Source: Escallonia rubra (lineage: Eukaryota; Streptophyta; Magnoliopsida; Escalloniales; Escalloniaceae). Taken from it: a stretch of DNA of 64,000 nt. The notes under the pieces are model-generated. The model saw only the letters and a list, made by a program, of their open reading frames with translations. It was not told the origin of the DNA and searched no databases. The stretch spans positions 124,001 to 188,000 of the forward strand of contig JAVXUO010001312.1 in assembly GCA_033065855.1 (NCBI GenBank), written 5' to 3'. Numbering within the stretch: the first letter of the stretch is position 1; every line of letters begins with the position of its first letter. Position numbers and translations under genes: made by a program. Shown here one piece after another: positions 848 through 58,448 of this stretch.

Positions 848-39498
<38,651 letters not shown>

Positions 39499-47358: not shown

Positions 47359-49636
47359 ATGGCTGGATTATTGAAGAAAATGAGGTGTGCATCGTCATCA
47401 CGAAAAACATCATCATCATCGCAAGCACCACCACCAGCACAAGCGCCAGCGCCACGGCCATCACAAACACCAATCCAAGCACCAACACAACCATTCGTTC
47501 CTAGACGAATGAGTACAGGCTGTATGATAGATACCCAAGCCAATTGAGAGTTCAATCAAAACATTCCAGATTTTGAATACATGCCTGATGAAGACCCCCC
47601 GCATTATAGTCAATGACGCAGCTCGGTTGGCGAAGCTACTACTCCGTGGCATAATCTCAACCCTATGCTTGGTCATGATGAAGAAGGGCCGAGCAATGCC
47701 TCCGGTAACGTGCCAGAAGTCCAAAAGGGAAAAAAAAAAGAAAGCCGAATGTTGGAATCATTTCGATGTAGTTACGGTGGACGGTATCCAAAAAGCTCGA
47801 TGTAAGTACTGCGCTAAATTATTTTCGTCTGGTAGTGGTAATGGACATCTTAACAGGCATTATCCTCAGTGTGCACCTCGACAAGGCCACGTCGAACCTA
47901 CCCAAACGCAGTTATCTTTTGACGGTAAGTTATTTGTTTATAATCAGCGAGAGCAAAGAGACGATCTCGCTGAATTTGTTATTCATGATGAACAAGCCTT
48001 TTCTTTTGCCGATAATCCTAAGCACTCTAGATATATGAACACATACGTTCAACCTTTGTACAAAAAGGTTCATAGAAACACAACTAGATCCGATGCACTC
48101 CGACAGTACAATGCTGCCAAAGCACGCCTTATCGATTATTTCGATAAATTTGACGGTAAAGTTAGTCTTACTTCTGATATTTGGCAATCTCCTTATACTT
48201 TTGTTAGTTATTCTTGTGTGACCGCTCATTGGATTGATGCAGATTGGGTTATGCACAAGAGAATCATCGCTTTCGAGCACTTTCCTTTTCCGCACGATGG
48301 AATGAACATTGCTATTCTTATATTAAAAGCATGTACCACATTTAAAATAAAGGATAAGATTATAAGTGTTAGTTTTGATAATGCTTCTAATAATAAAGCT
48401 GATGTTGCAGCTTTAAAGGAGACGCTTCAACCTGTACTTAATGGTGAATTATTTCATGTTCGTTGTATTTGTCACATTATTAATTTAATTGTTCAAGATG
48501 GTTTAGCTGCTGCAGGAGATATTCTTCTCAAAATGAGGGGTATGACAGCGTATGTTAATAGCTCGAGTCCGAGAACACAACAATTTAAAACGTTGTGTGT
48601 TCAATATAATATGCCTCGCAGGAGAGCAGTTACAGATGTGGTCCACAGGTGGAAGTCTACATACCACATGCTTTTACACATTCTGGCATACCGAGAAATC
48701 TATACGCATTTTCTACTAACCCAGTTTCCAGCCGGCTTGCCAACTTAAAAGGAATGGCAGATGGCCACATACCTAGCTGATTTTTTACAGGTATTCTACA
48801 CGTCTACGAATTTATTGTCTGGTACGTACTATCCCACCTCTCCTCTCGCTGTAATAGAAATTCTCAAGATGGCTACAATGTTAACAAAATGGAGATATAT
48901 AGGACCCTTTCAACAAATAGTAAAAGAGATGGATAAAAAATTTAATAAATATTGGAAGAAATTGCCTGTTATTTTTGTTGTGGGTACTTGTTTAGATCCT
49001 AGGTTAAAGTTGCATGGCGTAAACGCCTCGATACAAGAGATATCAAAATTAATGTGCTACACAGCAGAGGAGACAACCGCACTCACAGCAAAAGTGAGCA
49101 AGAGGTTTGAGGACTTGTTCAACCTCTATCGTAATTCTGCTGACGTGCGCGAGTGAGCTACATTATCATCCACTATTGAGAGGTATTATGCGCCATACCT
49201 TCAGGGCTTTGAACATCTAGTAGCAAGACAACTACCAGGTGAAGGTACTTCTAATTCGGCAGGTTCGAATACTTTTTCTTCTTTTAATGAGATTGGTGTA
49301 TATGCAAATACTGATCATTATTCTGATTTATCAAGGCAAGAACATGTTAATTTTAATTTGTTAAATTTTTGGAAACAAAATCAAAACATGTATAAAACTT
49401 TATCCCAAATTGCACGGGATGTACTGCCAGTGCAAGCCTCTACGGTTGCTTCAGAGTCGGCATTTTTAGCCAGCGGGAGGGTTTTGGATGACAGGAGGAG
49501 TCGTCTTAACCCCGAGTCGCTCGAGCTATGTGTATGTTGGAAGGATTATCTTGATGCGAAATACCGCGAGCAAGATAAACCGATTGATGATTGGAAGAGC
49601 AGTGACTCGGATATTGAAGTACTTCCGGATGATTAG
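47359..49636 (+). pseudogene. hAT transposase with BED zinc finger, broken
   Basis: Catalyses cut-and-paste of hAT elements. Begins MAGLLKKMRCASS with a Ser/Pro/Gln-rich tail. The BED zinc finger (WNHFDVVTVDGIQKARCKYC, then GNGHLNRHYPQC) lies at about 47752-47872. The RNase-H-like core follows with TSDIWQSP and ISVSFDNASNNKAD. The C-terminal hAT dimerisation domain (ASTVASESAFLASGRVLDDR, LNPESLELC) ends at 49636. In-frame stops are seen at 47545, about 47614, 48746 and 49154, and the frame changes at an A-run near 47730, so no full protein can be made. Three of the four stops are TGA, compatible with decay of CGA codons in methylated DNA (inference). Confidence 0.93.
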
Positions 49637-50229: not shown

Positions 50230-51302
50230 TATTACATATAATGAAATAAAAGGATAAAAATTAGATTTGTCAAATTTTGAAAATTGGACATGCCTAAAGA
50301 TGAAATTTAAAATTGAAAATTGGGGAGTATTTTGGTCTAACTTAAAATTTTCAACTCTTTTAAGGGTTTTTACACTCTTACCCTTCCCAACAACTATAAA
50401 CGGATAGTTTTTAAGGGTATTTTGGTCTTTTGTGAAGTTTCCAAAATCTATAAATTCACACTAGTTCTCTCTCAAATAGTAACAATTGTTATGTGTTAAG
50501 ATTTTATTAATAAAGCTCACCAAAAAGAGTATGAAAATGTTTAACATATAATAAAAAATATAACGGCTAACAAATAAATATGTATATACATACATACATA
50601 TATATATGTATATTACTTATAATGAAATAAAATGATAAAGATTAGGTTCGTTAAATTGTGAATATTGGACATGCCTAGAGATGAAATTTAAAATTGAATA
50701 ATTGGACGGCCCTAGATATTGGGCCTAGGGCCAGGGCCTGGACTGGGCCCAGATTTCCCTTCGGCAGGCCCGGCCCAGATTGCAGCCCCACTGGCCCGGC
50801 CCCATCCCGGTTTCACAACAGGCCTGATGGGCCCGGGCTGGGCCGGCCCATTGACAACTCTAGTGGGACCGACTAGCTAGGCAAATCTTGAAGCAAACAC
50901 GCTAGTAAAGAATAGGGATAATATCATTTTACTCCCCTGAACTATTCCCGTTTTTTTATTTTGGTCCCTGTACTTTAAAACTCGTTAAATCAGTCTCTGT
51001 ACTTTACCCCGTCATCAAATCGGTCCCTCCGTTTGGATTTCCCCGTAAAAAAGGACCACGTGACAGGCACAGGTCTTCTTTTGAGGGGTATTTTCGGAAA
51101 TGGACTGAGTCCCACCCTAATTATCCCCCCTTCTCTCTCTCTCTCTCTCTCCCTCTCCCTTTGAGTAACCCGGATCTGCGAATCGCGAAGGTAAAGCCGC
51201 ACGCCCCGAACGGGTTCGACTCGGGCTTGCCGTCGGTGACCGAATCCATGGCCGGTAGCCTTAGTGTAGCCGGAATTGCAGGAAACAGGGCAGCGGCGCG
51301 TT

Positions 51303-51580
51303 GGTGTTGGGCGGTGGCGTTCAGTGAAGGAGCGTCGGAGTTGATCGCCGGTGATGGGGTCCATGGCCGGCAGCGGGGCTGTCCCGAGGTGGGAGTGGCG
51401 CCGCCGATCTAGGGCCGGTTGCCATCTCTCATCTTCTCTCCCGATCTAGGGCCGGCAGCGGGGCTGTCCCGGTGTTGGGCGATGACGTTCAGTGAAGAAG
51501 CGTCGGAGTTGATCGCCGGTGATGGGGTCCATGGCCGGCAGCGGGGCTGTCCCGAGGTGGGAGTGGCGTCGCCGATCTAG
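51303..51580. repeat. 109-bp direct repeat in the Pack-MULE
   Basis: Copies at 51303-51412 and 51472-51580, sharing TTCAGTGAAG, AGCGTCGGAGTTGATCGCCG and CCATGGCCGGCAGCGGGGCT with a few differences. The GC-rich text may be a second captured gene fragment that I cannot identify. Confidence 0.85.
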
Positions 51581-51584
51581 TTTC

Positions 51585-52070
51585 CACCTCAATGGAAGGC
51601 ATTGTCACGAAAATGTGAAGGTCCTTGCCGTCGTTGACAGCTTCCATCATGGTGATACAGTGGGAGCTCTCTACGTTCTGAGCGGGATCCTGTCCTGTCG
51701 CCAGGAACACTGCAGACACGATGTTATTGGCGTGGGCGTTGAAGCCTCCCAGAGCTCCGGCCATGGCGGATCCCGTTAAGTTCTTGAGCATATTAAGCTC
51801 CACCAAGGAAGCAACATCCGTCTTCAGGACCTTCTTCACCACCTCCTCCTTGATGATTGCCTCGCACACAACCGACTTGCCCCTGCCTTCGATCCAGTTC
51901 ACCGCAGCCGGCTTCTTGTCAGAGCAGTAGTTACCGGAGATGCCAATGACATCCATGTCCGGGAAGTCAGCCTGAAGGAAATCCAAGACGTTCTGGACAC
52001 CTTTGGAGACCATGTTCATCCCCATGGTGTCCCCCGTGCTGCAGCAAAACCTCATGTACAAGTTCTTTCG
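51585..52070 (-). pseudogene. Captured fragment of HMG-CoA reductase (catalytic domain)
   Basis: The minus strand reads uninterrupted for about 160 residues: [80 protein letters not shown], then MPSIEV. These are hallmark plant HMGR residues (NADPH-binding DTMGMN; the E-G-R-G-K loop; DKKPAAVNW). Homology stops at SIEV, after which the frame runs into unrelated GC-rich element sequence until about 51489. The N-terminal membrane part and the C-terminal catalytic His region are absent, so it cannot be an active reductase. The donor gene lies elsewhere. Confidence 0.95.
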
Positions 52071-53299
52071 GAAATGGACTGGAGGACCCCCTCAATTTCG
52101 AAACCTTGGCTCTAGTTTTTAACAGGTTTGACTGTTAAAAACGAGTCCATTTCTGAAAATACCCCTCAAAAAATGACCCGTGCCTGTCACGTGGTCCTTT
52201 TTGACGGGGAAATCCAAACGGAGGGACTGATTTGATGACGGGGTAAAGTACAGGGACTGATTTAACGAGTTTTAAAGTACAGGGACCAAAATAAAAAAGC
52301 GAGAATAGTTCAGGGGAGTAAAATGATATTATCCCTAAAGAATAGCAAGGGAGTTCAAGACGCCATAAGGCAGCACCGGTGGCGCTCGTGATGGTCAGCA
52401 CACAATCGGTAGTCATCAACAGCGTTACCACCCAACGATGCTCAGTGCCTCGCACCATCATCCGCACAATAATTAACGTATCCGCGGATCACCTCATAAT
52501 CACATAGAAAAAGGAACACAAGACGGAGAAGCACTACGACTGTACGCCACCGTCGGTGGCCATTGTCGCCAACCACAGTCTCGATAAATCCCCTTCCAAC
52601 CAACAGTGCCACGACAACCAAGGACAGCGGTACCACCGGAACTACGGCCTCCACTGCCAATTCGGTCGCCGTTGAGAAGGGAATTTTCAACATCGCCGCA
52701 CATAATTGTCGATGTTTCTGTCCGGCGGTGCTTCGGCAACTAGGACGTCACCACACATAGCAATGGGTCCATCCAGCGCCGCGGGTTTTTTGTCTGCCAT
52801 TAAACCCAACTGTCGCTACCACAATCTCCTACTGTTCTATTGTCCACCGCTCAATGGACCGTTACCATCAGTCTAGGCATCCCAAGACGCAACAATAACC
52901 ACCGCGGTCGTGCCGTCACTGCATCGCCTACCATTATAGGACGTAACGATAACCACCGTGACCACATGACAGTAACTGCGGTCGCCAATTTGTCTTAGCA
53001 AATAGTGAGTTGCCGGCACCACTTTGGCCAACTCCCCGCAAAAATCCATTTCGGCCAACGCCACGTCGCTGCAATTCACCTCCTCGCCTTTGCGTCACTA
53101 TATTCGTCGGTAACAAGGGGTTACCGCAATCGGCGCCTTCTTATCTGGTCAATCTCGCCACGATCGACGCTCTCACTGATCACACCCATCGGTCTGTTTC
53201 TCTGATCACCACGGAGTTACGAAAAATACCGAAAATGCAAACATACGCACCTTCGCCGATATTCCAAATGTCATAGGTCTTCCTCTGCGAGTCTGCCGC

Positions 53300-56743: not shown

Positions 56744-57282
56744 TCATTGGGTATTTAAAGTGTGATTTTGTACATATTCAAAGAAATTATTTCTGCAAAC
56801 GTAACAGTGGTAGAAGGCTGATCCTACCCTTGTCGATGAGATCTTGTATAGCATTCTCAAGGTGATACACCTCCCCATATGGTGTCTGGATCCTTGGTAA
56901 TATTCACATCGAGCATGCATGTTAGGCCTTTTTGGTGTAGCAGTGGAGGGTAACTTGACAATCATATATATACTGAACAGTTGCTCAAACACTTTAGTTA
57001 TAGGGGCACACATATTAGAGAATTTTCGCCTAGTGACAGATGGCTCCCATGAAACTACCTCTTGACATTTAATAGTATTAGCATTACTGCATGTGAACAC
57101 CTTTAGATGGGTGTTGGGATTCCTCAGACAAGTCCTGTATCCTCTTAGTTTCCCGTCCTTGGCTATCATTCTTTCGTTGATGGCATCCTCATTTTGAGTG
57201 AGAGAAGCTATCAATGCCTTGAACTTGGCGTGATATGTGGCCAAAGATATACTCGTGATAGACGGACAAGAGATTGTTTCAA

Positions 57283-58448
57283 GGGTTAATTACAGTTATA
57301 TCCCTCAGGTTATGGTGAAATTACAGGCGTGTCCATTAGTTTAAAAATAGGCACTTGTGTCCTTTGACCTAACGGAATAGCCAAATACATAACGGAATGG
57401 TTAAAATGACCATATTGCCCATGCCCATGACTTAAAATTGAATTTCTTGAAATGCCACTCTTTTCATCTCCCCCACCCACGGGCCGCCGTCGAGGCCATT
57501 TCCGCCGTAAATGCAAGGAAATCAATCTTCCATAAGAACTCAGAATAAAAGGGAATCAACCCAAGCAGGATTGCCTAATTTTTTTTGTGTTAACGACTAT
57601 AAGAACATAGAATAAAGGTTTTTCTACAAACTCACAGCAGTGGCTTGTGGAGGCGTGTCATGGCGGAGGTCGCGTATGTATCTCGTTGTGGGGTATGTAA
57701 GCGTGGGGCTGGATAGGTAACCTAGAGATGATGGTGTGACGGGGGTGGCTAGATCTGAAGTGGGGGGTGAGGGGATTACTTCGGTGGTCGGTGGTGGTTG
57801 CGGTAGAGGTTGGTGGTTATGGGTATGGAAGTGGGGACAGTGGCGGTGCATTGGGCCGTTGGCGGCGTGTGTTTGCGATGGTTTTCGACGAGGTGGAATG
57901 ACAGAAGGGCTACCGCCAGGGTGGGGTAAGGGGATGGGCTATTGGCGATGTGGGGTGAAGAAGGGGGCTGCCAGCGGGGTAGGGTGAGGAATGGGGCTAC
58001 CGACATGGTGGTGGGGTGAGGGAGGCAGTTGCCGCCGGCTTGGTAGGGTGAGGGAGGCGGTTGCCGCCGGCGTGGTGGGGCGAGGGAGGGGCAACTGAGT
58101 TCAAATTTGGAAGAGATGAGTTAGGTTGTCTATTTTCTCAACAAAAAAAAAAGGAATTTGATAGAGAAACCCATTTTTTTGGTTTAAAAATTAGGTCTTT
58201 AACCTTAATTAAAGAATTAAGGCCTTAAATGTTTATACAATATATACAATATAAGGGTAGTATTGTCATTTTAAAAATACATATCGAAGACATCTACACT
58301 TTTTGGACTGTTACCTAACAGATGGACACATGTATTACCTTTTTTACGTTTGTGGTGATGTTTGTGGTCATGGTCTGTTACTTTTTGAAACTTAGTGTCC
58401 TTGATTGTAATTACCCCCAAACCTCAGGGACATGGGTGTAATTAACTC
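57283..58448. mobile_element. MULE-like non-autonomous element in the gag fossil
   Basis: A 1,166-bp element with ends GGGTTAATTACAGTTATATC...(inverse GAGTTAATTACACCCATGTC) and the 9-bp flanks TTGTTTCAA (57274-57282) and TTATTTCAA (58449-58457), 8 of 9 matching. Subterminal words CCCTCAGG...CCTGAGG are inverted. The middle (57620-58090) is GC-rich (GGTGGGGTGAGGGAGG-like) and may be a captured segment, which I cannot name. No transposase. Confidence 0.78.

What the first reader, a model, noticed from the sequence alone, without database searches (positions are those of the whole stretch)
50915..52335. Pack-MULE that captured part of an HMG-CoA reductase gene
A Mutator element with ~190-bp inverted ends and a perfect 9-bp duplication carries ~160 uninterrupted codons of the HMGR catalytic domain on its minus strand, plus a GC-rich block with a 109-bp repeat. 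HMGR is the control step of the mevalonate pathway, so an antisense or sense transcript from this element could yield small RNAs against the parent gene. The capture is direct; any regulatory effect is speculation.
Basis: partly seen in the sequence, partly recalled or inferred. Interest (0 to 1): 0.75.

Follow-up and report, generated by a model that had tools for sequence, protein, structure and literature searches.

The report
Jumping gene carrying stolen HMGR pieces
A plant jumping gene of the Mutator kind recently picked up two pieces of a key sterol-pathway gene, apparently by a patchwork copying accident, and spread to at least five places; a second, older jumping-gene family in the same genome had already picked up a neighbouring piece of the same gene, so this is an example of a known process with an unusual repeat.

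Summary
In detail: a 1,421-bp element (50915-52335) with 192-bp inverted ends (95%), a perfect 9-bp target duplication, a GC-rich block with a 110-bp repeat, and 490 bp of an HMG-CoA reductase (HMGR) gene on the minus strand. It is a Pack-MULE. The source is an intact HMGR gene on contig C2782, 98.4% identical; the majority sequence of five HMGR-carrying copies differs from it at 4 of 489 bases. A second, inverted 58-bp HMGR piece reaches into intron 1, so DNA was copied. The right end of 5 of 5 HMGR copies carries inner sequence of the left end, found in 0 of 15 relatives without HMGR; with short microhomologies this suggests template-switching repair. And an older MULE family (56 HMGR-matching loci, 10 read) carries exon 1 of the same gene, one break falling within 3 bases of a break here. 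Protein function is not supported; silencing of the parent gene is possible but untested. New member of a known kind.

The parts
50906..50914 (.). left copy of 9-bp target site duplication TAAAGAATA
50915..51106 (+). left terminal inverted repeat (192 bp), starts GGGATAATATCATTTTACTCCCCTGAAC
   Evidence: terminus repeated genome-wide
51092..51107 (+). inner end of left TIR (TTTCGGAAATGGACTG), found again at 52066-52081 and, with one change, in the right TIR
   Evidence: (D6)
51107..51579 (+). CT-rich tract and GC-rich block shared with relatives that lack HMGR; no gene of origin recognised
51303..51412 (+). 110-nt repeat unit, first copy
51471..51580 (+). 110-nt repeat unit, second copy (96%)
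51580..52069 (-). HMGR piece A: 490 bp of exon 2 of the parent gene (C2782, L009 3690-4179), 98.4% identical
51489..52091 (-). 200-codon stop-free frame: HMGR piece A fused to GC-block codons
   Evidence: stop-free in 5 of 5 copies
52066..52081 (+). 16-bp filler identical to the inner end of the left TIR, between HMGR pieces A and B (overlapping each by a few shared bases)
   Evidence: (D6)
52079..52136 (+). HMGR piece B: end of exon 1 plus the first 8-10 bp of intron 1 (L009 3488-3545), 98%, inverted relative to piece A
52132..52142 (-). 11-bp snap-back copy of 52115-52125 (end of exon 1), making a small hairpin
   Evidence: (I6)
52144..52335 (-). right terminal inverted repeat, carrying inner left-TIR sequence that was found in 0 of 15 relatives without HMGR
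52336..52344 (.). right copy of the 9-bp target site duplication

Best explanation
A non-autonomous Mutator-like element that already carried a GC-rich block was broken, or lost its inner right part, and was repaired by a polymerase that changed templates several times. Read along the minus strand from the right end, repair copied the left TIR past the usual inner limit of the right TIR, jumped to the exon 1/intron 1 border of the HMGR gene on contig C2782, copied 11 nt, snapped back to the other strand for about 55 nt, returned for 16 nt to the TIR inner end, jumped to exon 2 of the same gene for 490 bp, and rejoined the GC block. The finished Pack-MULE then transposed with 9-bp duplications to at least five places, presumably moved in trans by a MULE transposase. 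Shown: the mosaic, the parent, the altered right arm, five copies at separate sites. Inferred: the break, the order of the jumps, a single event, the transposase. The HMGR piece has no detected protein function; at most it could feed small RNAs that act on the parent gene.
For: Parent gene with an intact joined frame of 604 codons. Both HMGR pieces come from one gene about 145 bp apart and piece B includes intron DNA. Five places hold piece A besides the parent and two more distant paralogs (11 matches, 8 of 8 candidates scored). All five copies have the same termini; 9-bp duplications are perfect in three, have one mismatch in C2052, and are ambiguous in an AT repeat in C675; 9 of the 10 300-bp flanks match nothing but themselves (the tenth, left of C675, was masked as low complexity). 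Inner left-TIR tract in the right arm of 5 of 5 HMGR copies and 0 of 15 relatives. Shared bases CAG and GAAA at two junctions, read by eye; random joins give 3 or more in 5.5% and 4 or more in 1.7% of 20,000 draws. MULE transposase domains are abundant (150 scored of 3,309 candidates). Template-switch and gap-repair models are described in passages seen of PMC8277862 and PMC4858842.
Against: At the other junctions shared sequence is only 0-2 bp (by eye). No transposase gene with this TIR was found. The order of events cannot be read from one product; capture in two rounds is not excluded. In 2 of the 15 relatives the site of the right-arm tract was not located at all.
Confidence: 0.86

Rival explanations
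1. The HMGR fragment encodes a working or domesticated protein kept by selection.
For: A 200-codon frame is stop-free in 5 of 5 copies. 5 of 11 private changes are synonymous, above the 22-27% expected from all mutation types. Piece A varies at 11 of 490 columns against 28 of 471 in the CT tract and GC block.
Against: If only C-to-T/G-to-A changes are considered, 43% synonymous is expected, and 6 of 11 changes alter the protein. Piece A varies about like the TIRs (4 of 191 and 6 of 192). Only 163 of 604 codons are present. In the older family 55 of 56 fragments contain a stop, mostly a TAG that is probably inherited. At this divergence few stops are expected anyway.
Confidence: 0.03
2. The element is a source of small RNAs that act on the parent HMGR gene, and copies persist because of, or are limited by, this effect.
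For: 336 to 399 24-mers per copy match the parent gene perfectly (347 of 1,398 in the window copy); the review PMC13317346 (passages) reports captured fragments as siRNA reservoirs in maize.
Against: No RNA data here. The HMGR pieces do not form a long HMGR hairpin, since A and B come from different exons, and the 192-bp TIR stem contains no HMGR. HMGR is essential (recalled), so strong silencing would be selected against.
Confidence: 0.15
3. Capture came from two MULEs of the family lying beside the HMGR gene (capture in cis), not from repair copying.
For: A mechanism based on closely spaced elements is described for Pack-CACTA in the review PMC13317346 (passages).
Against: No TIR match within the 8,001 bp fetched round the parent (nothing further out was examined); pieces A and B are inverted to each other and separated by TIR filler, which simple flanking does not give.
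Confidence: 0.05
4. The HMGR piece came through mRNA (retrocopy) before entering the element.
For: Piece A is pure exon.
Against: Parent exon 2 has no intron inside piece A, so absence of introns is uninformative; piece B carries intron 1 bases.
Confidence: 0.01

Closest known systems
Pack-MULEs of rice and other plants (Jiang et al. 2004, known to me here through passages of PMC13317346; models in passages of PMC4858842 and PMC8277862)
   Same: MULE ends, 9-bp duplications, captured gene fragment with an unlinked parent, GC-rich internal region, multicopy
   Different: Junctions here suggest several template switches, a snap-back and an altered TIR in one element; the same parent gene was also captured by another MULE family. 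I did not establish how often either occurs in known Pack-MULEs
Pack-TIRs formed by gap filling or FoSTeST in animals (PMC8277862, passages seen)
   Same: Capture from an unlinked gene with short microhomology at junctions, multicopy
   Different: Plant MULE; filler from the element's own TIR lies between the captured pieces
Second MULE family of this genome (example L041 about 4283-5632)
   Same: Same terminal GGGATAATATCA, 9-bp duplications, fragment of the same HMGR gene
   Different: TIR matches of 42-60 bp with other sequence, exon 1 instead of exon 2, 9.5-15% from the parent, many more copies

Membership tests
Mutator-like element (MULE) | terminal inverted repeats, often long (definition recalled) | tested here: met
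   192 bp, 95% in the window copy, 97-99% in the other four
Mutator-like element (MULE) | target site duplication of about 9 bp (definition recalled) | tested here: met
   perfect 9 bp in the window copy, C3180 and C2732; one mismatch in C2052; ambiguous in an AT repeat in C675
Mutator-like element (MULE) | mobilised by a MULE transposase | tested here: inconclusive
   PF10551 domains abundant but none seen inside a pair of these termini on the printed rows; candidate long elements of the other family could not be fetched
Pack-MULE | contains a fragment of a host gene whose parent lies elsewhere | tested here: met
   parent C2782:207689-208178
Pack-MULE | no transposase coding of its own | tested here: met
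   1,421 bp; HMGR is the only Pfam hit among the four frames scanned
functional HMG-CoA reductase | complete catalytic domain | tested here: not met
   covers profile positions 148-307 of 368

The most novel reading that the evidence does not exclude
The HMGR gene on C2782 is a recurrent capture site with a fixed fragile base: two different MULE families, at different times, took neighbouring pieces whose breaks meet at the same position in exon 1 (CTTCCTG|GAGG), so capture is steered by a property of the donor gene, such as a recurrent break or stalled fork, rather than being random.
Probability: 0.12. Interest if true: 0.65.

Novelty: new member of a known kind. Interest (0 to 1): 0.42.

Why it matters
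How plant MULEs acquire gene pieces is not settled; PMC8277862 (passages) says it is worth exploring whether gap filling or fork switching applies to plant Pack-MULEs. This young element, with an almost unmutated parent, relatives that lack HMGR and four sister copies, keeps a readable junction record and suggests that one TIR was rewritten from the other during capture. Two separate captures of one central metabolic gene, with one shared break, give a testable case for donor hot spots, and the pair (young copies 98-99%, old 85-90% identical to the parent) would let one ask whether small RNA pressure on the parent fades with age.

Tried and rejected
Origin of the GC block: a genome search (40 of 212 candidates scored) and three fetched places (read) gave relatives, truncated copies and loose matches and no recognised gene; I did not scan those three for protein domains. 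Autonomous partner: of the 100 of 184 exact termini printed, none lies with a partner around one of the 150 (of 3,309 candidates) PF10551 hits; three contigs occur in both lists (C85, C131, C1071), the nearest distance being about 9 kb (by eye). A local fold of the parent in 60-nt windows gave no outlying structure at the shared break (rank 0.59 sense, 0.47 antisense of 358 windows), so a hairpin does not explain it. The stretch of family 2 beyond its HMGR piece matched only loci of that family among the 40 scored of 153 candidates. Literature: searches for Pack-MULE with HMG-CoA reductase, Mutator-like with captured and HMGR, and 3-hydroxy-3-methylglutaryl with transposable element, captured and gene fragment returned 0 papers; other searches gave listings of which only PMC8277862, PMC13317346 and PMC4858842 were looked into, as passages. 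Only the held open-licence library was searched. No dates in years are given because the species and its rate are unknown.

Full report
Observation. The window copy is a 1,421-bp element, 50915-52335, with termini GGGATAATATC...GATATTATCCC, inverted repeats of 192 bp at 95% identity and a perfect 9-bp duplication TAAAGAATA. Inside are a CT-rich tract, a GC-rich block with a 110-nt repeat at 96%, and a minus-strand frame of 200 codons, 163 residues of which match PF00368 at E 2.3e-61; PDB HMG-CoA reductase chains match at E 6.2e-91.

Copies and parent. The window lies in a 566-Mb genome in 3,222 contigs. A search with the HMGR part gave 11 matches (8 of 8 candidates scored): five element copies (C1031, the window; C2052, C675, C3180, C2732; 98-100%), the parent gene on C2782 (98%, two stretches), and two paralogs at 75-83% (C2886, C2176; two stretches each). 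The five copies differ from each other at 0.4-2.3% of aligned sites. Their 300-bp flanks match nothing but themselves in 9 of 10 cases; the left flank of C675, an AT repeat, was masked and gave no match even to itself. Target duplications are perfect over 9 bp in three copies, have one mismatch in C2052 and are ambiguous in the AT repeat of C675. The parent gene joins into an intact 604-codon frame with a single intron (L009 2486-3535 and 3644-4408). The majority sequence of the five copies differs from the parent at 4 of 489 sites: two synonymous, two nonsynonymous, one of the latter a few bases from the junction. The capture is recent.

Anatomy of the capture. Piece A (51580-52069) is the reverse complement of parent exon 2, L009 3690-4179. 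Piece B (52079-52136) is L009 3488-3545, the end of exon 1 with the first bases of intron 1, in the opposite orientation to A. The intron bases show that DNA was copied. Between A and B lie 16 bp identical to the inner end of the left TIR (52066-52081 = 51092-51107). Just beyond B an 11-bp snap-back makes a small hairpin (I6). The right TIR of 5 of 5 HMGR copies runs on into inner left-TIR sequence (TTTTC[G/A]GAAATGGACT), which was found in 0 of 15 relatives without HMGR; 13 of those 15 have another sequence there, and in two (L025, L026) the site was not located. Junction overlaps, read by eye, are CAG between piece B and filler, GAAA between filler and piece A, and 0-2 bp elsewhere; of 20,000 random joins of gene and element 5.5% reached 3 bp and 1.7% reached 4 bp. 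Together these point to repair synthesis with several template switches that began by copying the left TIR; the order and the single event are inferred. Models of this sort are described in passages that I saw of PMC8277862 and PMC4858842.

What the element was before. Relatives share TIRs and GC block but not HMGR. Of the 12 relatives whose right parts were printed, 11 run on in GC-block sequence past the point where HMGR begins here. The twelfth, C1698 (L006), carries a different insert that begins within about 10 bp of the same point; its short frame resembles P-loop proteins: in the PDB comparison the best row was FAP42 (E 1e-6), guanylate kinases followed from E 6.6e-4, and Pfam matches stayed under their cut-offs. 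The exact 28-bp terminus occurs 95 times forward and 89 times reverse, 0 and 0 for the reversed pattern.

A second family. The Pfam search of the genome returned 70 matches (82 of 82 candidates scored): 1 for the parent, 5 for the copies here, 8 for the two paralogs, and 56 others within profile positions 3-92, of which 55 contain at least one stop. I fetched 10 of the 56. All 10 align as one family with termini GGGATAATATCA, end-to-end TIR matches of 42-60 bp in 9 (L049 lacks a recognisable right end), and 9-bp duplications read by eye in 8 (not L042 or L049). Of the 56 loci, 28 have an exact copy of the 34-bp terminus within 1.5 kb (from the 76 exact rows). In the 10 copies the fragment is exon 1 of the same C2782 gene: 82-85% to it against 67-77% to the paralogs. 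A DNA search with the parent gene scored 40 of 108 candidates and gave 34 rows of this family, 33 of them among the 56 and one further (C3220); 30 of the 34 end at parent position 3490. The two subfamilies share the 3' junction, and 14 of 532 sites at which eight compared copies agree with each other against the parent, some of which may be changes in the parent; I read this as one old capture, 9.5-15% from the parent. Its break lies after L009 3490 (CTTCCTG|GAGG), and piece B of the window element begins at 3488-3491, the uncertainty being the shared CTG. With two breaks in one family and four in the other over about 1.9 kb, I estimate a chance of about 1.7% for such a meeting (8 pairs times 4 positions; own arithmetic, made after seeing it). 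It may be chance; a local fold did not single out the site.

Function. Private substitutions in piece A are 5 synonymous and 6 nonsynonymous events. Neutral expectation is 22-27% synonymous for all mutation types and 43% for C-to-T/G-to-A alone, so weak selection is neither shown nor excluded. Piece A varies at 11 of 490 columns, close to the TIRs (4 of 191, 6 of 192) and less than the CT tract plus GC block (28 of 471); the CT tract and CpG richness may inflate the latter. Per copy 336-399 24-mers match the parent gene perfectly; for the older family 8-29 in the 10 copies examined. So, if small RNAs were made, the young copies are better able to reach the parent. No RNA data were available.

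Placement. It meets the tested features of a Pack-MULE: TIRs, 9-bp duplications, gene piece with known parent, no transposase of its own. The link to a transposase is inconclusive. It is a new member of a known kind; what lifts it is the readable junction record and the second capture of the same gene. Three literature searches joining HMGR with such elements returned no paper in the held library.

Noticed in passing
L041:4283-5632 and 55 further PF00368 loci listed: An older, higher-copy MULE family carries exon 1 of the same HMGR gene; one of its breaks coincides, within 3 bases, with a break of the window element.
   Followed up: yes
L006:931-1510 (C1698): A sibling element without HMGR carries another insert near the same point of the GC block, with a P-loop-like frame; similar DNA at C645 and C3027 (95%).
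   Followed up: partly
L009:2486-4408 versus C2886 and C2176: The parent HMGR gene has one intron, while its two paralogs match in four separate coding pieces each: possible loss of two introns.
   Followed up: no
G000 C449:229995-235795 and C476:9055-14852: Family-2-like termini in inverted pairs 5.8 kb apart: candidate long, perhaps autonomous MULEs; letters could not be fetched.
   Followed up: no
window 47531-48748: 405-codon open frame with a BED zinc finger just over the Pfam cut-off (20.7 against 20.6), perhaps a hAT-type transposase (the latter recalled).
   Followed up: no
window 57282-57326: 45-bp stretch 80% like the second family's end region.
   Followed up: no
window 50706-50860: GGGCC-rich tract next to the element, open in several frames; nature unknown.
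   Followed up: no
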